NCBI GenBank assembly: GCA_030156225.1
Contig: JASGMW010000033.1
Location: 1 to 32,390 of the forward strand
DNA from: Methanofollis sp.
GTDB taxonomy: Archaea; Halobacteriota; Methanomicrobia; Methanomicrobiales; Methanofollaceae
DNA length: 32,390 nucleotides
Reading direction: 5' to 3'
Part shown: positions 662 to 10,824 of the stretch, in pieces
Layout: each line of letters opens with the position of its first letter
How positions within the stretch are numbered: position 1 is the first letter of the stretch
Translations under genes and position numbers: made by a program
The notes under the pieces: model-generated
Told to the model about the DNA's origin: nothing
Database searches by the model: none
What the model saw: only the letters and a program-made list of their open reading frames with translations

Positions 662-1291
662 CTATTGTGATTGCCGGATGCATGCCTGTACCCCGGTATA
701 GAACGATTGAAAACTTGCCGATCGATTATTTTCCGGAATCATCATTCCCGATATGTTTGACGCGACTCGAATTTTCTGTTGTGGTCCGGAATAGCCTGCC
801 CGTTGAAGTACCCGTTCGAGCGTCTCCCATGTGTCGATGATTGCATCCGGATCTCGATATTTTACTTTGTTGCCCAGAGTTGCTGGTATTCCGGGATATG
901 CAGCGACAAGCGCGTCTATATCCCCAAAAAACCAGGCTTCGAGTTCATCTATTGCAATTCTATTCAGAACCTGAAATCGACCATCGTGCCGGGGTGAATT
1001 CTTTGTTGCAAGTCCTGCCCCTATCGCGATCTGTTCCAGTTTCTGTTTCAGTAACATACAGTCATCGCGATCTCTGTCAACCAGGACAATGATGGTGTAG
1101 TCTGGCGGGATCCATTTTTTATAGCCTCGCAGTCTGTCAGGCAATTTTTTTAAAATGTCTTTTTTTCCGTTATATGGGTGAATGTTGAACGAATCCTCGT
1201 TTCGTATCATTTTCGGGAAGATACTATTCAGCGCAGCGCGTGCCGATTCTTCTTCAAGGAGGATTTCAATGAGGTACCACCGGGATGTCAT
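662..1291 (-). CDS. DUF4276 family protein
   Basis: EILLEEESARAAL, GKKDILKKLPDRLRGYKKWIPPDYTIIVLVDRDRDDC and ELEAWFFGD motifs typical of DUF4276. Confidence 0.8.
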   Translation of the reverse strand: MTSRWYLIEILLEEESARAALNSIFPKMIRNEDSFNIHPYNGKKDILKKLPDRLRGYKKWIPPDYTIIVLVDRDRDDCMLLKQKLEQIAIGAGLATKNSPRHDGRFQVLNRIAIDELEAWFFGDIDALVAAYPGIPATLGNKVKYRDPDAIIDTWETLERVLQRAGYSGPQQKIRVASNISGMMIPENNRSASFQSFYTGVQACIRQSQ

Positions 1292-1563: not shown

Positions 1564-1875
1564 TCATCCTTCTGCAGAGCAGACCTCGGCGGCGGCAACC
1601 ACGTCGTCCCTGAAATAGCGGCTCAGATCCTGCGGGGTGAGGAGATCGATCTCCTTTCCGCCGAAGGTGCGGGATAGTTCCTCCCGGATCGCAAAGAGCC
1701 GAAAAAATCCCGGGGTGTGGCCTTCTTCGAATTCCACGAGGATGTCTATGTCGCTCTCCGGCCCGAAATCGTCCCGGAGCACAGACCCGAAGAGGGAGAG
1801 TTTCCTGATGTGATATTTCCTGCAGATCTGCCTGATATCGTCATAAGGGACAGGGACATGCGGCGTGCCGGTCAT
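1564..1875 (-). CDS. MNT-type minimal nucleotidyltransferase (MntA-like antitoxin)
   Basis: LSLFGSVLRDDFGPESDIDILVEF = GSxxRxxxxxxSDIDxxV motif; KEIDLLTPQDL. Confidence 0.85.
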   Translation of the reverse strand: MTGTPHVPVPYDDIRQICRKYHIRKLSLFGSVLRDDFGPESDIDILVEFEEGHTPGFFRLFAIREELSRTFGGKEIDLLTPQDLSRYFRDDVVAAAEVCSAEG

Positions 1876-1993
1876 GGCGGATCACTGTAGGTACCTCTGG
1901 CGGTGTCTCCTGATTAAGTGTTCGCAGGGGTGGTGCCGGAAGGTGAGAGCGAGGTCGCCCCTGATCATGAAGGGGTGCTTCCCCCGGTATTGC

Positions 1994-2245
1994 CTACGAT
2001 ACGTCATCCAGGATCTGGAGGAACTGATCTTTTGTCAGGCCGGTTTCTCTGATTATCGTTCGAAGCAGTCCTCTACCTATCATCTCTCCTTCATGGACCG
2101 GGACAACGGTCATTCTTCCGTCGGGGTGTTTGAGGATGATGTGACTTCCTCGCTGCCTGATCGGTTCAAAACCAATGCGCTGGAGGGCCCGAACGATCGT
2201 TCTGCCATCAACAGCCCCCAACTTCGACAAATTGCACCCCGACAA
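1994..2245 (-). CDS. hicA: HicA family mRNA interferase toxin (start codon uncertain)
   Basis: [61 protein letters not shown], a classic HicA dsRBD-like fold with the GSH motif; overlaps upstream hicB. Confidence 0.85.
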
Positions 2246-2423
2246 ATTCCCGATGATCGCTACTGTCTATTCCGCTCACCTCGATATAGAGGGCAATCGC
2301 CTCTTTGATCCGTTCCATCAGTTCGTCGATGCTTTTCGCCTGTGTGTGACATCCCGGCAGAGAGGGAACGTTTCCGACATAGTAGCCGTCTTCGTCTTTT
2401 TCGATCACGACACCGAGTTTCAT
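2208..2423 (-). CDS. hicB: HicB family antitoxin
   Basis: [48 protein letters not shown]. Confidence 0.88.
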
Positions 2424-2514
2424 GGATTCTCAACGTATGATTCATCGATATTTTCTGATATAACAGTATGGTCAGGTCCATGTCGCCCGCAAAACGGTGA
2501 ATGCATGTCGCGCA

Positions 2515-2603
2515 GAGCCGTGGAAGGGGGCCGTAGTGCGCCACGCAGGATGCGAGGAGCGCCGCACCGACGGCGGCGATGCCGGAAGCGTGCAGGCGAT
2601 CCG
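2515..2603. repeat. Dispersed repeat copy A of a small membrane-protein gene fragment
   Basis: About 90 bp near-identical to 4762-4852; minus strand reads DRLHASGIAAVGAALLASCVAHYGPLP. Confidence 0.8.
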
Positions 2604-2651
2604 TTCTATTGGACGTAAAAGGGAGCACCGTTACAGCGAGAACCCGCCGGG

Positions 2652-3095
2652 TTATGATGCATCTGTAAGACGGTGCACCGTAAGAAATGGGCACCTCGTG
2701 AAATCATTGTCGAAAGTCGCAATATCGGTGATCGAGTGTTGAACACATGTTGCAGCGATAAGCGCGTCGTTTGGCAAAAGACCGCAATCGATCATGATTC
2801 GCCGTGCGGTTTCCTCTTCAGAGCGACTGAACGGAATCGTCCGGGCGAGATCGAGAAGTTTTTCGACTTTCAGAAGTTCGGTTTTGATCTCTGATAGAAT
2901 ATCCGGGTTTGCTTTTATTTCATGGGGTTTTCTGCCGGTGTATAATCGTATGAAGACATGGTATACCTCACTCCCGACAATTGCGTTACGGTATATGCGT
3001 TTCTTCTGGGTGAGGGCCAGAAAGTTCCTGTAGATCTCTTTGTCTCCCTCCAGGATTTTAAGGAAGACGTTCGAATCAATGAAGACTCCACTCAT
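2652..3095 (-). CDS. PIN-domain toxin (VapC-like)
   Basis: [48 protein letters not shown] acidic motifs. Confidence 0.85.
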
Positions 3096-3273
3096 CGTCC
3101 AGTTCTTCCAGTGCTTTTGCTGTGTCTTTCCCTCTCAGGAGGCCGAATGCATCTTTGATGATTGAGGATGGCTCTTCTATGGTAATCTGGATTCGCACCC
3201 CTTCTTTCAGATCGAGTTTCTGGAGTGGTCGAAGGACGCCGGATTCATAGACGGCATCGATCACTTTCGTCAT
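3076..3273 (-). CDS. DUF104 / AF2212-like antitoxin
   Basis: [34 protein letters not shown]; overlaps the PIN gene by 20 bp. Confidence 0.85.
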
Positions 3274-3337
3274 GTGTTTCTCCTATGGAGTTCATGGAAT
3301 TGAAGGTATCGCTTGCGCGATCACTTCGAGGTCCGCA

Positions 3338-3523
3338 TCAAAAGATCGTCGTTGTTCTGCCCCGTTCGTTAAGCACGGCCACACATCCGGCGATGGCGTC
3401 CTTGATGTTTTCCAGCGCCTCTTCAAGGGTTTCACCCTCCGAGTGGCAGCCGGGAAGTGCAGGGCAGCTGACGGTGAACCCGCCGTCTTTGTGGTCGGGC
3501 GTGACGACGACTTTGAAGATCAT
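3338..3523 (-). CDS. HicB family protein, orphan
   Basis: MIFKVVVTPDHKDGGFTVSCPALPGCHSEGETLEEALENIKDAIAGCVAVLNERGRTTTIF; ATG at 3521-3523. Confidence 0.8.
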   Translation of the reverse strand: MIFKVVVTPDHKDGGFTVSCPALPGCHSEGETLEEALENIKDAIAGCVAVLNERGRTTTIF

Positions 3524-3526
3524 GAT
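3438..3526. repeat. 89-bp perfect direct repeat, copy 1 (hicB 5' end)
   Basis: Identical base for base to 5670-5758. Confidence 0.92.
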
Positions 3527-3720
3527 CAGATGATGATTGCCGATGGAAGCGGATAATGGTCTGGGAGAAACGAGTCGGGAAACACTGCGCCAGAACCGGG
3601 AGGGCGGAGAAGCGACCGGTCCGGGGTTCATCTGGAGGGTGTGTTCGCGCCTGATGCCTCCGGGGAAAAACCGTGTAGGGCCGGGTCACCTTTATTATCC
3701 CGGACAGAAGAGTACCCGGA

Positions 3721-4197
3721 ATGATGACGATGGACAGCCATGGAGCAGATATGTTCGGGCCGGAAACCGGCCGCCTCCATGTCCTTGACCGGGAAGAGCA
3801 GTCCCGCGTTCTCCGGGCGGTGGGGGATGTCATGGGCCGGTTCCCCGCAGTCTCTCTCGGTTATGTCTTCGGTTCGTTTCTTCGGGGGCCGTTTCATGAT
3901 CTCGACTGTGCGGTCCTCCTCTCCGGGCTTCACTCGCCGTACGAGGCGATGAAGACTGCCCGGCGCATCGAAGGGGAGATCGAACGAGCGGTAGGCTACC
4001 TGTGCGTCGTCGAGTGCCGGGTTCTCAACGATGCCCCGGTCTCGTTTTCCTATGAGGTGATCCGGACGGGGCGTGCGGTGTACGTGCGGGAGCCTTCGGC
4101 AAGAGTCAGGTATGAAGCAGATCTGATCTCGGCCTGGCAGGACTATCAAGAGACACTGACCTGGTTCAACCGGCGATACCTGGAGCGATCGCCGTGA
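3721..4197 (+). CDS. MNT-type nucleotidyltransferase antitoxin (MntA-like)
   Basis: LGYVFGSFLRGPFHDLDCAVLLSG: GSFxRG-x3-DxD motif; overlaps the HepT-like gene. Confidence 0.85.
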   Translation: MMTMDSHGADMFGPETGRLHVLDREEQSRVLRAVGDVMGRFPAVSLGYVFGSFLRGPFHDLDCAVLLSGLHSPYEAMKTARRIEGEIERAVGYLCVVECRVLNDAPVSFSYEVIRTGRAVYVREPSARVRYEADLISAWQDYQETLTWFNRRYLERSP

Positions 4198-4622
4198 TGC
4201 TCCGGGATGAAGAGGGGATCATCGCTCATCTGCGAGAACTGGATGAGGCCCTTTCAGACTGGGAGCGATATCGGGCAGTTTCATATCAGGATTTCCAGAA
4301 GAACCGGGATACGAGAAATATGGTGCTCCACGCACTCCTGATCGGGATTCAGGCGACGATCGATATTGCCAATCACCTGATCGCCGGAGAGGATCTCAGG
4401 CGGCCTTCGACCTATCGTGAGAGTTTTGTCATCCTCTCGGAGCGGGGAGTTCTCACGCCCGAACTTGGAGAGGCAATGGGCGATCTGGCCGGGTTTCGGA
4501 ACGTGCTCGTTCATATCTACTGGCGTCTCAATCTGGAGGAGGTGTATCGGGTGTTGCAGAACGATCTCCCGGTGGTGAGAGAGTATGAGGCTGTGGTGAA
4601 GGGATGCCTGAAAGAAAGTTGA
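4194..4622 (+). CDS. HepT-like (DUF86) ribonuclease toxin
   Basis: LLIGIQATIDIANHLIA...LAGFRNVLVHIYWRLN, with the RxxxxH (RNVLVH) motif. Confidence 0.88.
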   Translation: MMLRDEEGIIAHLRELDEALSDWERYRAVSYQDFQKNRDTRNMVLHALLIGIQATIDIANHLIAGEDLRRPSTYRESFVILSERGVLTPELGEAMGDLAGFRNVLVHIYWRLNLEEVYRVLQNDLPVVREYEAVVKGCLKES

Positions 4623-4761
4623 AGCGGCTTTTTGTTCATGTGTCATCTGGCGTGGTGCCTGCCGCACCGTCCTCCAGTTCTTCACCCCCATCCCCCCCCG
4701 CCGCACGAACCATGCCGCGGCGAAGACGAGCGGCACCCCGATCGGGATGCAATAACCCGCG

Positions 4762-4852
4762 GGGCCGTGGAAAAGGGGGCCGTAGTGCGCCACGCAGGAG
4801 AGGAGGAGCGCCGCGGCGACTACGGCGATGCCAGAAGTGTGCAGGCGATCCG
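4762..4852. repeat. Dispersed repeat copy B of a small membrane-protein gene fragment
   Basis: Near-identical to 2515-2603; minus strand reads DRLHTSGIAVVAAALLLSCVAHYGPLFHGPAGYCIPIGVPLVFAAAWFVRR. Confidence 0.8.
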
Positions 4853-4907
4853 GTGGGGGCCATACTGCCAATGCTTATATCCGGTCGGTTCCATATAGCG
4901 CGCAGGT

Positions 4908-5159
4908 ATGAAGTTCACCATTATACTGGAACGAGATGAAGAGGAGCGGTATGTTGCGGAATGTACCGACCGGCCGGGATGCCTGTCCGGGGGCGACACC
5001 CCCGGGGAGGCGATCCGCAACATCAACGAGGCGATTCCGGGGTGCATCACGTCCCGCCTCAAGGTGGCGGCCGGTTCGGTTCATCTGCCGCCGGTGGATC
5101 GCACCGTCACAACTTCGCTCGATATTTCCGGGCCGACCGATGCCAAAAATGCCCCGTGA
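4908..5159 (+). CDS. HicB family antitoxin
   Basis: MKFTIILERDEEERYVAECTDRPGCLSGGDTPGEAIRNINEAIPG. Confidence 0.78.
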   Translation: MKFTIILERDEEERYVAECTDRPGCLSGGDTPGEAIRNINEAIPGCITSRLKVAAGSVHLPPVDRTVTTSLDISGPTDAKNAP

Positions 5160-5304
5160 ATCCGGGGATAAACATGTCGCCGCCCTGAAACGCGCCGGGT
5201 GGGAAATCAACCATATCGAAGGAAGCCATTCTATCCTTATCAAGAAAGGGATGCCGGTTCACCTGTCGGTTCCGGTCCATGCGGGCAGTCGCGTGGTGGG
5301 ATGA
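5140..5304 (+). pseudogene. HicA family toxin, C-terminally truncated
   Basis: MPKMPRESGDKHVAALKRAGWEINHIEGSHSILIKKGMPVHLSVPVHAGSRVVG*; lacks the usual GTLRxIIKxAGLTxxEF tail. Confidence 0.7.
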
Positions 5305-5328
5305 GCGTCTTTCTCCTCAGCCGACCGG

Positions 5329-5541
5329 TCAGAGCATCGCCGCAAATTCATCGACGGTGAGGCCTTGCGTCTTTGATGAGGTTTCGTAAAGTCCCTCTTT
5401 TCAATTCGTTATGGAGAGGGTGACATCCAGCCCGGCCTTTTCCATGATCATGTGGCTTCCCGTCTGCCTGGATGTGGTGAAACCGAATTTATGGAAGGTC
5501 TTGACTGCCGTCGAACCAGATATGACGGGGAGTTTCGCCAT
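5329..5541 (-). pseudogene. HicA toxin pseudogene with at least two frame disruptions
   Basis: MAKLPVISGSTAVKTFHKFGFTTSRQTGSHMIMEKAGLDVTLSI|NELKRGTLRNLIKDA|GLTVDEFAAML*, recovered only by switching frames. Confidence 0.8.
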
Positions 5542-5547
5542 GGTCTG

Positions 5548-5755
5548 TTACACGGACACGTCGATGACGCTGCTTCCCACGGCCTTGTGCGCACGCTCGT
5601 TGAGGACGGCGACACAACCCGGCGATGGCGTCCCTGATATTTTCCAGCGCCTCTTCGATGGTCTCTCCTTCCGAGTGGCAGCCGGGAAGTGCAGGGCAGC
5701 TGACGGTGAACCCGCCGTCTTTGTGGTCGGGCGTGACGACGACTTTGAAGATCAT
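5548..5755 (-). pseudogene. HicB pseudogene with 1-nt insertion
   Basis: MIFKVVVTPDHKDGGFTVSCPALPGCHSEGETIEEALENIRDAIAG, then removing one base gives CVAVLNERAHKAVGSSVIDVSV* ending just before hicA. Confidence 0.8.
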
Positions 5756-5758
5756 GAT
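5670..5758. repeat. 89-bp perfect direct repeat, copy 2 (hicB 5' end)
   Basis: Identical base for base to 3438-3526. Confidence 0.92.
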
Positions 5759-5977
5759 ATGATGATTTTTATCATCGCAGTATCGGATAATGGTTTGGAA
5801 GTACCTGTCCGGGAGATGTACGCCCGAACCCGGGGCGACGATGGAGATCCCGGTCGGGTGCCGGAAACGTGCCCGTCCCTGCAGGCGTCTCAATCAGGAA
5901 GGAGTGCGTGTCCGGTCACGCTTCGCCGACCGCCCCCCGCCACCACACGGGCGCTGGACCATCGGGAGTTCTCCCGG

Positions 5978-6193
5978 GTGAGCACGGACCCTGGCTGCTG
6001 CACCATCTGTGGTTGGGGGCGGGCGGTGTTTCTCTCGGTCGATGGGCGGGTCGTTTTGTGCGAGGGATGCTATGCCCGGCTGGTGCGGGCGTGGTGCGGG
6101 CGGAAGGGGATCGCGTTGACCCCTCTGGATCCATTGCAGACGCCGGCGGCGGTGCCCGGGATGGCAGGGGTGGGTTTTTGCGCCCCGGGGTGA
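5978..6193 (+). CDS. Small Cys-rich (possibly zinc-binding) hypothetical protein
   Basis: Putative GTG start: CCTICGWGRAVFLSVDGRVVLCEGCYARLVRAWCGRKG, two CxxC-like knuckles. Confidence 0.4.
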   Translation: MSTDPGCCTICGWGRAVFLSVDGRVVLCEGCYARLVRAWCGRKGIALTPLDPLQTPAAVPGMAGVGFCAPG

Positions 6194-6473
6194 TCGGGAA
6201 TTTGTTCTGGGTGGCGTTAAGGTGCGGTGACGGGGGACCCGTACGTGATGGTGATGTTCGGGTTTTACCGGGCGTGAGGCGGTGGTGGAGATGGTGAATG
6301 CGGGGGAAAGTCCCGAAATTGGATGAAATCAAACATTTCGTACGAGAATCATGGGAGTATGAAGAGATTTGCGGCACTAAGGTACAACCCGGAGAAGATA
6401 ATCTAAGTCATTCAGGAGCGCGAAAATCAAAAAATCTAATTCAGATGAAAACATCTGTCAAAAATAAGGTAGT

Positions 6474-7991
6474 ATGAGAGTTTTAATTGATACGAACATT
6501 CTGATCTACCGTGAAGACGATCGAGACGTCTCTCCAGAGATCAGTACCCTGATGAAGATCCTCAGCAAGACTCATACAGACGTACTGCTTCACCCGGCAT
6601 CATTAAAGGATATTCAGAGGGATAGAAACGAAGAGAGAAAACGGATTACTCTCTCCAAGGTAGAAGCCTATCAAATTCTGGAAAATGCTCCTGTACCCGA
6701 TGAAGACGAAGAATTTTTCGAAAATACTGGAGCGCCAAAGAGAGTCAATGATGAAACAGATAACCTGATTCTTTATTCTGTATATAAAAATGCAGTCGGG
6801 TTTTTAATCACAAACGATAACGGAATCCATTTAAATGCATCGAAACTCGGCATAGCAGACAGAGTATTTTATGTAGAGGACGCAATCGAATTTTTCGGAA
6901 AGGATCTGCCATCATCAGAGGCTGTATCCAAACCTTTCCCGCTGAAAAAAGGCTATGTAAGCGATCTCAATCCAGATGACCCCATTTTTGATACGTTAAA
7001 ACAGGTTTATCCAGAATTTGATGAATGGTTCACGGGTATTGCGAGAGAGGGACGTGAATGCTATTACAACAAACGGATCGACGGAACCCTGGGCGCAATA
7101 ATGATCTACAAATTTGAGGAAGAGCCTATCCCATCCAATCCCCCTCAACCGTCGATGAAACGCCTGAAAATTTCTACATTGAAAGTATCGCATGAGGGGA
7201 ATAAGATAGGTGAACTGCTGCTGAAAGTCGCATTTGGAATTGCAGCGGAAAATCATCTTTCTCAGGTGTATCTTACGCATTTCACCAAAGATGAGGACAG
7301 GCTTGTCTATCTGATTACTCAGTTTGGGTTTAAACAGGTGGGCATATTACCCGGCAATAGGGGCGAAAGAGTATTCGTTAAGAAATTATATCCTGCTGGC
7401 GAAGACTGTAAGGAACGTACTCCGCTACAGATCGCTGGAGAGTATTATCCATCATTTTATGACGGAAACAATGTCGATAAATTTGTCGTACCTATTCGGC
7501 CAGAATTTCATCGTCGTCTGTTCACTGACTTTTATGGTGACGGAAAAAGACAACTCACACTCGATGAAGCCATGGGGGATTTCATCGTAGAAGGTAACAC
7601 CATTAAAAAGGCGTACCTTACCCACAGCAAAATCAAGAAACTGAAAGAAGGAGATCTTGTATTGTTCTATAGATCTCGTGACATAAAAGCAATCACATCT
7701 CTGGGTGTTATCGAAAAAGTCCACTATGCACTGAGTAACCCTGAAGAGATAACAGAAATCATAGGTAAAAGGAGTGTTTATTCCAAATCTGAGATTGAAT
7801 TATTCCAAAAACCGCTTACTGTAATTCTATTTAAACACCATATGAATTTAAAGAATCCGGTCAAATTGTCAGTATTGATAGAATCCGGCATATTAAACGG
7901 TCAACCTCAAACCATACAGGAAATAGATGATGATGAATTCAGCAAGATCAAGAAACTTGGTGAAATAAATGAACGTTTTACTATCCATTAA
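6474..7991 (+). CDS. PIN - GNAT acetyltransferase - EVE/PUA-like fusion protein
   Basis: N-term MRVLIDTNILIYRED...DNLILYSVYK...FLITNDNGI (PIN); middle ISTLKVSHEGNKIGELLLKVAFGIAAENHLSQVYLTHF (GNAT motif A region); C-term AYLTHSKIKKLKEGDLVLFYRSRDIKAITSLGVIEKV (EVE/PUA-like). Confidence 0.82.
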   Translation: MRVLIDTNILIYREDDRDVSPEISTLMKILSKTHTDVLLHPASLKDIQRDRNEERKRITLSKVEAYQILENAPVPDEDEEFFENTGAPKRVNDETDNLILYSVYKNAVGFLITNDNGIHLNASKLGIADRVFYVEDAIEFFGKDLPSSEAVSKPFPLKKGYVSDLNPDDPIFDTLKQVYPEFDEWFTGIAREGRECYYNKRIDGTLGAIMIYKFEEEPIPSNPPQPSMKRLKISTLKVSHEGNKIGELLLKVAFGIAAENHLSQVYLTHFTKDEDRLVYLITQFGFKQVGILPGNRGERVFVKKLYPAGEDCKERTPLQIAGEYYPSFYDGNNVDKFVVPIRPEFHRRLFTDFYGDGKRQLTLDEAMGDFIVEGNTIKKAYLTHSKIKKLKEGDLVLFYRSRDIKAITSLGVIEKVHYALSNPEEITEIIGKRSVYSKSEIELFQKPLTVILFKHHMNLKNPVKLSVLIESGILNGQPQTIQEIDDDEFSKIKKLGEINERFTIH

Positions 7992-8370
7992 ACCGGTTTA
8001 CACCTCCAGAATAATTGCAGGAACGAAAAAATATGAGTTTCGGAGAGTTATCTTTAGAAGGAAGAACATCAATTCGGTTTATATTTATTCAAGTTATCCT
8101 GTTAAAAAAATCATCGGCAAATTCACAGCAGGTAAGATCCTGGAAGACAGGCCGGATCTGCTGTGGGAGACTGTAAAAGATAAATCAGGACTGAGCGAGT
8201 CAGAATTTTTCAAGTATTTCGCAGGAAAGTCAAAGGGTTTTGCAATAGAGATCGGTGAGTTTACGCTCTTCAAGGATCCCATTGATCCAAGAAAGTGCTA
8301 TAAAAATTTTATTCCTCCTCAATCTTTTTGCTATCTTGACCACGATCTATTAGAAAATCCCCCCAATTGA
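7969..8370 (+). CDS. ASCH-domain (PUA-like) protein
   Basis: MNVLLSIKPVYTSRIIAGTKKYEFRRVIFRRKNINSVYIYSSYPVKKIIGKF, ASCH pattern; overlaps the preceding gene by 23 bp. Confidence 0.82.
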   Translation: MNVLLSIKPVYTSRIIAGTKKYEFRRVIFRRKNINSVYIYSSYPVKKIIGKFTAGKILEDRPDLLWETVKDKSGLSESEFFKYFAGKSKGFAIEIGEFTLFKDPIDPRKCYKNFIPPQSFCYLDHDLLENPPN

Positions 8371-8708: not shown

Positions 8709-8936
8709 TTAGAGAAGATCGTTCAACTCTTCGACCGTCATATTCGCCTGCTTTAAAATGTGCGACAGGGTGGAACGCTTAACCGGCGTGTGCATGGGCA
8801 CGGTCAGCTTCAGTGTCGTATCGGGCAGGTGTTTTTGCAGGCGGATATGGCTGCCCCGCTGACGGACCACAACCCATCCATCCCTCTGAAGGGCCGTGAC
8901 GATTTTGTCGTAGTTCAGAACGGGGACCTGATTCAT
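8709..8936 (-). CDS. hicA: HicA family toxin
   Basis: YDKIVTALQRDGWVVVRQRGSHIRLQKHLPDTTLKLTVPMHTPVKRSTLSHILKQANMTVEEL. Confidence 0.9.
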   Translation of the reverse strand: MNQVPVLNYDKIVTALQRDGWVVVRQRGSHIRLQKHLPDTTLKLTVPMHTPVKRSTLSHILKQANMTVEELNDLL

Positions 8937-9136
8937 ACAGCGATCTCAATCTGCTCGGATTTTTCGGTACGGACATAATCGTCCTCAACCGTTTCGAGAT
9001 ACAACTCGATCGCTTCCCTGATATTTTTCAATGCTTCTTCCTTTGTATCCCCTTCACTGATGCAGCCGGGAAGGCCAGGTACATAAATGGTATACCCCCC
9101 TTCTTCGCAGGGTTCAAGCACAACCCGCAGTTTCAT
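8933..9136 (-). CDS. hicB: HicB family antitoxin
   Basis: MKLRVVLEPCEEGGYTIYVPGLPGCISEGDTKEEALKNIREAIELYLE; ATGA overlap with hicA. Confidence 0.9.
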   Translation of the reverse strand: MKLRVVLEPCEEGGYTIYVPGLPGCISEGDTKEEALKNIREAIELYLETVEDDYVRTEKSEQIEIAV

Positions 9137-9264
9137 ACCACTACCTCTCACCCCGGGAATTTATACGTAATCGTCCGGCACCGCAAGGAGCACGGTACCA
9201 TCACCCTCACCCCTGGAATGACTGACAATTGGTTGAGATCATTCCCTGCAATATCTGACCCTCC

Positions 9265-10218
9265 TTAAGAAAAATCTGCAAGTGTGGTCATGCGCGAAAC
9301 AGGGTTCTGCTGTTTTGCGAAGTAGCGGAGGAAATCCTGTGGCGATTGGACGGAGGTCGCGGACATGGAGATCAATGCAGTGTGCCCGGCCGTTGCCCCG
9401 GTGTTTGCGGGGTCTGGTTTTATGGAGTAGAGCGGTTTTCCCTGTTTGCGTGCAATCTCTGCCTGCCGGATGGATCCGCCGGATTCGCCGGTTTCGATTA
9501 CGATCACGGCATCGGAGAGTCCACTCGTGATCCTGTTCCTCTCGACGTACCGGCCTTTATGCATTTTTGCGAGATTGGTTACTTCGCTTACGAGGGACCC
9601 CGAAGTGACGATTCTCTGCGAGAGTTCTTCGTTCTCTTTTGGTACGATGTTTGTGAGGTCTCCCGGAAGAACGGCGATCGTTTCGCCGCCGCAGTCCAGT
9701 GCGGCCTTATGAGCATGGGCGTCTGTGCCGCGGGCGAGGCCGCTCACGATCACGTAGCCAAGCGAGACGAACAATTCCACTATTTCACTGATTTTTTCGA
9801 TGCTTTCGGGGCTGATATTTCTTGTGCCGACGATGGCAACTGCGGGCTTCGAGAGGTTTTTTCCGTTCCCTTTCCAGTAGATCATGAAGGGGGGATCGTC
9901 GAGGTCGAGGAGTTTTTTCGGGTAATCAGGATCATATGCCGGCAAGAGTCGGATGCCTTTTTGCCGGTAGCCCCTGATGATGTCGATGTAGAAGTCGAGC
10001 AGGCCGCGGGCGCGAATGTCCGCTGCTTTTTCAAGGATCGGTACGGGGAGGTCCGGATCTGCCCCGATTGCGTGTGCGCCGGTCTCAAAAATATCGGTGT
10101 AGAAGGTATGGAGCGCGGTCGGGTCACTGAAGCGTTCGACATATTCCCTCTTTTTCAGGGAGTGCACGTCGTTGAGGCAGGCGAGAAGCGCCAGTTCCCT
10201 GACGGTGTTGTCACTCAT
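9265..10218 (-). CDS. DprA/Smf-like protein (ShosA-like candidate)
   Basis: AVAIVGTRNISPESIEKI...VIVSGLARGTDAHAHKAALDCGGETIAVLPGDL...ISGLSDAVIVIETGESGGSIRQAEIARKQGKPLY. Confidence 0.9.
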   Translation of the reverse strand: MSDNTVRELALLACLNDVHSLKKREYVERFSDPTALHTFYTDIFETGAHAIGADPDLPVPILEKAADIRARGLLDFYIDIIRGYRQKGIRLLPAYDPDYPKKLLDLDDPPFMIYWKGNGKNLSKPAVAIVGTRNISPESIEKISEIVELFVSLGYVIVSGLARGTDAHAHKAALDCGGETIAVLPGDLTNIVPKENEELSQRIVTSGSLVSEVTNLAKMHKGRYVERNRITSGLSDAVIVIETGESGGSIRQAEIARKQGKPLYSIKPDPANTGATAGHTALISMSATSVQSPQDFLRYFAKQQNPVSRMTTLADFS

Positions 10219-10824
10219 TACGTCTCCTTAATACCTCAAGATGTTCTTTGTTGACCATTCTGCCGAGGACGAGCGACCGGATTTCACCGGCGCCGTGGGC
10301 CCGGAGTACGCTCGCGCACTCCCGTTTTGTGACCATATTGATGCACGTGTCATCGATGAGAAGGATCGACTCACCATTAAAGGTATGGTTGCAGCCGATT
10401 TTTCCTGCGATCTCCCGTTCTTTCAAGCAATGCCTTCTGCAAGAAGGGCCGAGGGATTGTAGCGTCCATCGTTTGATCCCCGCATGACCGGTACAACAAC
10501 GTCGAGATCCTGCAGTTCCGGGTACTGGTGCTTCATGGCGTGGTACATGCATTCCTGAAGCCGGGGGAGTACGGCGGGTTCTGTTTTCAGGCTGCGGATC
10601 TCGTTGCTGAGTATGTCGTCGGGAAACTCGGTTTGATACAGGTATTTCCCGAATGCCCTGACCCTGACCGGCGGATCGTATTTGTCAGAAGTACGGTTGC
10701 ATGCGCCGCAATAGGGATGGGAACGGGCGAAACTGTCCGGGATCGGGTTGCCGCAGACTTCACAATAGGGAGGGTAGAGTATCTCCAGCTCTTTCCCGTC
10801 CGATCTTTTGAATATCTTCTCCAT
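10211..10824 (-). pseudogene. ComF-like phosphoribosyltransferase (ShosT-like candidate), single frameshift
   Basis: First frame MEKIFKRSDGKELEILYPPYCEVCGNPIPDSFARSHPYCGACN...LDVVVPVMRGSNDGRYNPSALLAEGIA*; second frame continues LKEREIAGKIGCNHTFNGESILLIDDTCINMVTKRECASVLRAHGAGEIRSLVLGRMV (PRTase loop). Confidence 0.8.

What the first reader, a model, noticed from the sequence alone, without database searches (positions are those of the whole stretch)
6474..8370. PIN-GNAT-EVE-like fusion overlapping an ASCH gene: candidate two-gene RNA-targeting conflict module
Seen: one intact 505-aa ORF joins a PIN nuclease with conserved acidic residues, a GNAT domain and an EVE/PUA-like C-terminal domain. 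An intact ASCH ORF starts 23 bp before its stop, implying translational coupling. The segment is visibly more AT-rich than its flanks, as expected for a horizontally acquired cassette, and lies among toxin-antitoxin genes. Established: PIN and some GNAT toxins act on RNA or charged tRNA, and EVE/ASCH belong to the PUA-like fold, which binds nucleic acids and in some members modified bases. Inference: the fusion is a dual effector whose PUA-like domain recognises target RNA or a modification, and the ASCH protein acts as antitoxin or sensor.
Basis: partly seen in the sequence, partly recalled or inferred. Interest (0 to 1): 0.85.

Follow-up and report, generated by a model that had tools for sequence, protein, structure and literature searches.

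The report
Archaeal PIN-GNAT-EVE/ASCH toxin-antitoxin-like pair
This is a real, intact two-gene module in a methane-making archaeon, very probably a toxin (an RNA-cutting and acetyltransferase-like protein) with its partner, but it belongs to a family already described and catalogued as a candidate virus-defence or toxin-antitoxin system (PADLOC PDC-M11; the E. coli phage relative is labelled GevT/GevA), so it is a new member and not a new kind.

Summary
The window holds an intact 505-aa PIN-GNAT-EVE fusion (6474-7991) and an intact 133-aa ASCH gene (7969-8370) overlapping it by 23 nt, at 40% GC in a 58% GC window. Both match PADLOC candidate defence system PDC-M11 over essentially their full length (531.9 and 180.6 bits). 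The fusion plus ASCH arrangement was described by Bell et al. 2020 (who cite Iyer et al. 2013) as a predicted toxin-antitoxin system, and an E. coli phage record names the GNAT-EVE relative 'GevT toxin / GevA antitoxin'. It is therefore a new member of a known kind.

What I add: (i) the 23-nt overlap is kept from archaea to Pseudomonadota, Bacillota, Bacteroidota and a Helicobacter prophage, often with a Shine-Dalgarno-like GG-rich stretch inside the toxin gene. (ii) Four PIN acidic positions are kept in all 28 PIN-bearing homologues; the GNAT is atypical. (iii) The partner is most like ZmASCH, a shown single-stranded RNase, keeps two of its three tested residues family-wide, and lacks the YqfB nucleophile. 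(iv) Toxin and partner distances mirror each other. Toxicity, neutralisation, substrate and trigger are not shown here.

The parts
6474..7991 (+). PIN-GNAT-EVE fusion, predicted toxin/effector (PADLOC PDC-M11A)
   Evidence: 505-aa intact ORF; PDC-M11A 531.9 bits over residues 1-505
6474..6896 (+). PIN-like domain (about residues 1-141); D6, D46 (D/E), D96, D115
   Evidence: PIN_3 hit residues 2-116; D6, D96 and D115 invariant and D/E at 46 in 28 of 28 PIN-bearing homologues. The predicted model is poor in this part
6942..7382 (+). GNAT-like domain (about residues 157-303); invariant K232, G246, L277, G285; atypical cofactor loop G-x-K-x-G-E
   Evidence: family profile to NAA50 E 5e-5; model to NatD/PaiA; column counts
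7467..7988 (+). EVE/PUA-like C-terminal domain (about residues 332-505)
   Evidence: Pfam EVE above cut-off at 385-493; model top hit ZmASCH, TMt 0.79; homologous in profile comparison to the partner, probability 93.4%
7969..7991 (+). 23-nt overlap, ATGAACGTTTTACTATCCATTAA; the toxin stop TAA lies in the Ile-Lys codons of the ASCH gene
7958..7964 (+). Shine-Dalgarno-like GG-rich stretch inside the toxin gene, just before the ASCH ATG (approximate place)
   Evidence: sequence and aligned junctions, by eye; not tested experimentally
7969..8370 (+). ASCH partner, predicted antitoxin (PADLOC PDC-M11B)
   Evidence: 180.6 bits; model TM 0.84 to ZmASCH

Best explanation
It is a (PIN)-GNAT-EVE plus ASCH module of the PDC-M11/GevTA family, working as a toxin-antitoxin-like defence unit. 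Steps: (1) seen in the sequence: the ASCH start codon, with a Shine-Dalgarno-like stretch before it, lies inside the toxin gene; inferred from this: both are read from one transcript and ASCH is made by coupled translation in a fixed ratio to the toxin. (2) Inferred: ASCH holds the fusion inactive, by binding it directly or by occupying the same RNA or modified-base ligand that the toxin's own PUA-like EVE domain uses. (3) Inferred: on infection or loss of the module the balance fails, the EVE domain places the enzyme on its target RNA, most likely tRNA or another modified RNA, and the PIN nuclease cuts it, with the GNAT domain acetylating the same target or a linked group; translation stops and the infection or the cell is arrested. 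GNAT-EVE forms in phages and plasmids lack PIN, so the GNAT-EVE part is the core and PIN an addition. My estimates: TA/defence module 0.75; PIN as an active RNase 0.7; ASCH as the antitoxin 0.6; the GNAT acetylating RNA or charged tRNA 0.35.
For: Full-length PDC-M11A and M11B matches. Published prediction for the same architecture and operon. Phage record PV340567.1 calls the relatives 'GevT toxin' and 'GevA antitoxin', between cI and kil of a lambdoid phage; both are PDC-M11A/B. Pairing: of 30 archaeal genome loci with both ends at hand, 29 have an ASCH gene overlapping the toxin gene (28 by exactly 23 nt, one by 26 in the same register); L004 is the exception. Viral contigs: 55 of 55 hits to the junction pattern are this junction. 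Toxin and ASCH distances mirror each other (Spearman 0.71, 0 of 2000 permutations; archaeal subset 0.66, 0 of 2000). PIN acids kept. Mobile settings: archaeal provirus psiM100, prophages, plasmids. A PF02384 methylase lies within 10 kb in 15 of 31 archaeal loci (about 0.05 expected per locus, a rough estimate). The partner is closest to ZmASCH, a shown Mg-dependent single-stranded RNase.
Against: No toxicity or neutralisation data were available to me; the GevT/GevA names in the phage record are a submitter's label, and I found no paper behind them. The GNAT cofactor loop departs from R/Q-x-x-G-x-G/A and the usual tyrosine position is Ile, Leu, Phe, Val or Met. ASCH proteins can themselves be RNases or other enzymes, so the partner may not be a simple antitoxin. 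In four alphaproteobacterial plasmids an ASCH gene (in one tested case fused to an HTH) lies upstream instead, and some bacterial forms have no 23-nt overlap. The window copy's draft genome has no PF02384 hit at all.
Confidence: 0.7

Rival explanations
1. Modification writer/reader module: the GNAT acetylates a base in DNA or RNA, EVE and ASCH read modified bases, and PIN is a targeted nuclease, so the pair tags self or attacks modified viral nucleic acid directly, like an accessory to type I restriction, without a toxin-antitoxin cycle.
For: Iyer 2013 proposal as cited by Bell 2020; PF02384 methylase within 10 kb in 15 of 31 archaeal loci; EVE and ASCH domains are PUA-like; ASCH fused to HsdS in Methanohalophilus (reported).
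Against: The window copy lies among TA genes and its draft genome has no PF02384 hit. GNAT-EVE forms without PIN are found in prophages and on plasmids; the nearest solved ASCH is an RNase, and a PIN domain points to RNA.
Confidence: 0.2
2. Writer and eraser: the GNAT makes an N-acetyl mark (such as ac4C or acetyl-aminoacyl-tRNA) and the ASCH protein removes it, as E. coli YqfB removes acyl groups from N4-acylcytidines.
For: YqfB is an ASCH amidohydrolase; the ASCH model matches YqfB distantly (TMq 0.53-0.56).
Against: The YqfB nucleophile Thr24 aligns by motif with an invariant Glu (E23) in all 36 partners, while Lys21 and Arg26 are kept as K20 and R25. The closest structure is ZmASCH (TM 0.84), not YqfB.
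Confidence: 0.06
3. The ASCH protein is a second RNase acting with the fusion (two-enzyme effector), not an antitoxin; control is transcriptional or by the ATPase gene linked to some relatives.
For: ZmASCH cuts single-stranded RNA; its Tyr47 (Y40) and Ser128 (S119) are conserved family-wide; the ZmASCH stretch itself matches PDC-M11B (98.7 bits).
Against: ZmASCH Lys53 (K46) is replaced by Gly or other residues in about half of the family; a phage record names the partner an antitoxin; no ATPase gene is adjacent in the window.
Confidence: 0.12

Closest known systems
(PIN)-GNAT-EVE + ASCH operons (Bell, Wolf and Koonin 2020, PMC7641849; Iyer et al. 2013 as cited there) = PADLOC PDC-M11
   Same: Same three-domain fusion, same second gene, archaeal members, defence-island setting, PDC-M11A/B full-length HMM matches
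   Different: This copy sits in a toxin-antitoxin island and its draft genome has no PF02384 methylase hit; no AAA_17 ATPase gene is adjacent. The 23-nt overlap is not mentioned in the passages of that paper that I searched
GevT/GevA of E. coli phage PhiR47_2 (PV340567.1)
   Same: GNAT-EVE core and ASCH partner, same order, same 23-nt overlap, same PADLOC families
   Different: No PIN domain; about 28% identity over the shared part; lies in a lambdoid phage
psiM100 ORFD/ORF5 (archaeal provirus of Methanothermobacter)
   Same: PIN-GNAT-EVE (38.5% identity over the full length) and ASCH with the same 23-nt overlap
   Different: Carried by a provirus; the toxin gene lies mostly in the annotated 'inserted fragment IFa'
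ZmASCH (PDB 5guq/5gus)
   Same: Closest solved structure of the partner; Tyr47, Trp73, Tyr90 and the PPQS stretch are kept
   Different: About 30% identity; gene neighbourhood of ZMO0922 not examined; antitoxin role not tested
GNAT toxins TacT/AtaT/ItaT
   Same: GNAT domain in a toxin-antitoxin-like pair
   Different: Different partner fold, extra PIN and EVE domains, atypical cofactor loop, no tyrosine at the usual place (comparison from my own knowledge of these toxins)

Membership tests
PDC-M11 / (PIN)-GNAT-EVE + ASCH | Toxin-side protein matches PDC-M11A over its length | tested here: met
   531.9 bits, residues 1-505 of 505
PDC-M11 / (PIN)-GNAT-EVE + ASCH | Adjacent ASCH protein matches PDC-M11B | tested here: met
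   180.6 bits; 23-nt overlap
PDC-M11 / (PIN)-GNAT-EVE + ASCH | Domains PIN, GNAT and EVE in that order | tested here: met
   PIN in the model is low confidence
PDC-M11 / (PIN)-GNAT-EVE + ASCH | Association with type I restriction systems (frequent, not a defining requirement) | tested here: not met
   no PF02384 hit in G000, an 88% complete draft; met within 10 kb in 15 of 31 archaeal loci
Toxin-antitoxin system | Toxin inhibits growth; antitoxin relieves it | not testable with these tools
   no experiment; only the record label GevT/GevA for a relative
PIN RNase | Conserved acidic active-site set | tested here: met
   D6, D/E46, D96, D115 in 28 of 28 PIN-bearing rows
GNAT aminoacyl-tRNA toxin (TacT/AtaT type) | Cofactor loop R/Q-x-x-G-x-G/A and catalytic tyrosine | tested here: not met
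   mostly G-x-K-x-G-E loop; position G285 minus 4 is I/L/F/V/M in all 38 rows. By motif register only; the tyrosine's place is from my own knowledge
GNAT aminoacyl-tRNA toxin (TacT/AtaT type) | Ribbon-helix-helix antitoxin | tested here: not met
   partner is ASCH/PUA-like
YqfB-type ac4C amidohydrolase (partner) | Thr-Lys-Glu triad | tested here: not met
   Thr24 position is invariant Glu E23, by motif register
ZmASCH-type single-stranded RNase (partner) | Tyr47, Lys53, Ser128 of the cleft | tested here: inconclusive
   Y40 in 36/36, S119 in 35/36, K46 in 19/36 rows; all three present in the window protein; activity not testable here

The most novel reading that the evidence does not exclude
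The antitoxin is a PUA-like twin of the toxin's own reader domain: the fusion's EVE domain and the ASCH partner are homologous along nearly their whole length (probability 93.4%, E 2.5e-7), so the partner may neutralise by competing for the same modified RNA or by taking the EVE domain's place, with a 23-nt overlapping-gene junction held across Archaea and several bacterial phyla to fix their ratio. That would be an antitoxin acting at the level of target recognition.
Probability: 0.15. Interest if true: 0.6.

Novelty: new member of a known kind. Interest (0 to 1): 0.32.

Why it matters
The family is widespread: 42 of 397 genomes searched in the window's archaeal phylum have a match to the fusion, and 275 of 5,426 complete E. 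coli genomes carry a near-identical (99% or more) copy of the PhiR47_2 pair, all on chromosomes. In the literature I could read it has no worked-out mechanism. The conserved overlap, the kept PIN acids, the atypical GNAT loop and the ZmASCH link turn a general prediction into named residues and a junction that can be tested in a laboratory E. coli strain.

Tried and rejected
Family-alignment scans of viral contigs could not be run (no conserved stretch long enough), and a single-protein scan found no relative there; the junction pattern was used instead. The genome-contig scan gave one partial relative. The Iyer 2013 paper and the Brenes and Laub 2025 paper on E. coli prophage defence are not held; whether the latter describes GevT/GevA is not known to me. 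Papers found by EVE/PUA or defence words were checked and did not mention this system. IbfA considered and dropped (ATPase-TOPRIM). A YqfB-like eraser role was given a low weight because of the missing threonine. The PF02384 chance estimate uses a rounded genome size and a hit list that was cut, so it is rough. The 23-nt counts come from related sequences and are not independent events. The search for PF02384 finds N6-methylases in general (some hits lie in long frames that need not be type I HsdM).

Full report
Observation. The window carries an intact 505-aa ORF at 6474-7991 (+) and an intact 133-aa ORF at 7969-8370 (+), overlapping by 23 nt. The pair has 39.8% GC in a window of 57.9%; a scan of equal-length stretches has its minimum (39.7%) at a start of 6351, practically the cassette itself; third-position GC is 0.39-0.40 against 0.66-0.83 in five other genes.

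Domains. Pfam finds EVE above its cut-off at 385-493 and PIN_3 below cut-off at 2-116; scanning 15 close family members, 13 hit EVE, 12 PIN_3 and 6 Acetyltransf_1 at E up to 0.1. A profile of 38 family members hits solved N-acetyltransferases (NAA50, E 5e-5, positions 225-289). The predicted model of the fusion is moderate (mean pLDDT 67, PIN part low) and matches NatD/PaiA; its best match overall is ZmASCH (TMt 0.79), which I assign to the C-terminal EVE/PUA-like domain. The ASCH model is good (pLDDT 90.8) and superposes on ZmASCH at 1.6 A, TM 0.84, but only 0.53-0.56 on YqfB.

What it is. Both proteins match PADLOC candidate system PDC-M11 (A: 531.9 bits over the full length; B: 180.6 bits). 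Bell et al. 2020 describe this very architecture, its near-universal ASCH partner, its tie to type I restriction systems and a predicted TA role, and say that none of the modules in these systems had been experimentally characterised. Phage record PV340567.1 names the GNAT-EVE relatives 'GevT toxin' and 'GevA antitoxin'; both are PDC-M11A/B. Other relatives lie in provirus psiM100 of Methanothermobacter, in prophages and on plasmids of archaea and bacteria.

Survey. 42 of 397 genomes of the phylum hit the fusion at E up to 0.001. A 2689-base contig of a Methanofollis MAG holds an 83% identical fragment and has the same length and match as a contig of a genome of the window's genus (G008:C66), so the host is probably Methanofollis (inference). 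In G003, same genus, an 81% identical copy lies beside the same left-hand sequence. A PF02384 methylase lies within 10 kb of 15 of 31 archaeal copies (about 0.05 expected per locus, rough), but the window's draft genome has no PF02384 hit.

Junction. Of 30 archaeal genome loci with both ends at hand (the window's own copy not counted), 28 overlap by exactly 23 nt, L016 by 26 in the same register, and L004 has no adjacent ASCH gene. The same 23 nt is found in psiM100, on a Natronococcus plasmid and, by its annotation, on a Halalkaliarchaeum plasmid where the toxin is annotated as two pieces, and in nine bacterial or phage GNAT-EVE loci: E. coli phage, Rhizobium, Pseudomonas, Lacticaseibacillus, Roseomonas, Phocaeicola, Lactobacillus prophage, a Helicobacter prophage and Vibrio. 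Exceptions: Burkholderia, Paenarthrobacter and Rhodococcus (gap or other overlap), L054 (76-nt gap), L051 (ASCH hit on the opposite strand), and four alphaproteobacterial plasmids with an ASCH gene upstream. Over 39 aligned junctions the overlap is more conserved (mean share of the commonest base 0.89) than the 18 nt upstream (0.60) or downstream (0.69); a GG-rich stretch shortly before the ASCH ATG is common (by eye). In the non-overlapping loci L037, L041, L043, L044 and L045 the toxin lacks the usual C-terminal tail, so the tail is probably a by-product of the overlap. A 26-base junction pattern scanned over viral contigs gave 55 hits, and in 55 of 55 the ASCH reading frame starts there and the upstream frame ends in the toxin-type C-terminus, though some ORFs are short or broken (the pattern itself contains the overlap, so this tests specificity only).

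Residues. PIN: D6, D96, D115 in 28 of 28 and D or E at 46. GNAT: K232, G246, L277, G285 invariant in 38; loop mostly G-x-K-x-G-E; no tyrosine at G285 minus 4. EVE part: P326, H346, N375 invariant. ASCH: P9, K20, E23, R25, Y40, P44, W66, Y83, P117, Y122 invariant in 36. By the alignment to 5gus, Y40 = ZmASCH Tyr47, K46 = Lys53, S119 = Ser128. In ZmASCH, K53E, S128A and Y47F reduce nucleic-acid binding and Y47F also reduces RNA cleavage. YqfB Thr24, its proposed nucleophile, falls on E23. The ZmASCH stretch itself matches PDC-M11B (98.7 bits). The partner and the toxin's EVE domain are homologous in profile comparison (93.4%, E 2.5e-7, 131 columns), as expected for PUA-like folds. Toxin and partner distances mirror each other.

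Mechanism. Shown by sequence: architecture, pairing, overlap, conserved acids, presence on mobile elements, association with defence genes. Inferred: coupled translation, ASCH as neutraliser, PIN as RNase on an RNA picked by the EVE domain, GNAT acetylation of the same or a linked target. The rivals are weighed in their own section.

Verdict. The finding is real and correctly read at the sequence level, but the system is known as a predicted, catalogued one. It is a new archaeal member with a well-kept junction that makes the TA hypothesis easy to test.

Noticed in passing
window 9265-10824 (-): DprA-like gene matching PADLOC ShosA (228.7 bits) next to two overlapping ORFs (10423-10824 and 10211-10552, different frames); the first has a weak zinc-ribbon hit, the second reads ILLIDDTC, which looks phosphoribosyltransferase-like by eye. 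Perhaps a ShosTA pair with a broken partner gene.
   Followed up: partly
window 662-1291 (-): Protein matching PADLOC HEC-01B (278.7 bits), another candidate defence component; the rest of its system was not looked for.
   Followed up: no
window 1564-5893 and 8709-9151: Dense run of toxin-antitoxin genes: by Pfam a Polbeta nucleotidyltransferase with HepT at 3721-4622, three further HicB-like ORFs, and a HicA/HicB pair at 8709-9151; by eye also a nucleotidyltransferase, a HicA/HicB-like pair and a PIN-like ORF at 1564-3273.
   Followed up: partly
window 5997-6473: Left flank, mostly GC-rich, with a small Cys-rich ORF reading CCTICGWGR; a similar sequence lies beside the G003 copy, so the module may share an insertion place in this genus.
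   Followed up: partly
L036 6001-7502: On Halalkaliarchaeum plasmid pAArc-CO the fusion is annotated as two CDS with a break between them, while the ASCH gene is annotated whole; the tblastn match covers both.
   Followed up: no
L004 1501-3012: Same-genus genome G001 has a diverged PIN-GNAT-EVE homologue (about 30% identity) without an adjacent ASCH gene; a weak ASCH-like hit lies about 1 kb downstream.
   Followed up: no
L034 2222-5095: In a lambdoid E. coli phage the GNAT-EVE/ASCH pair lies between cI and kil, a spot that in phage lambda, from my own knowledge, holds genes such as rexAB.
   Followed up: no
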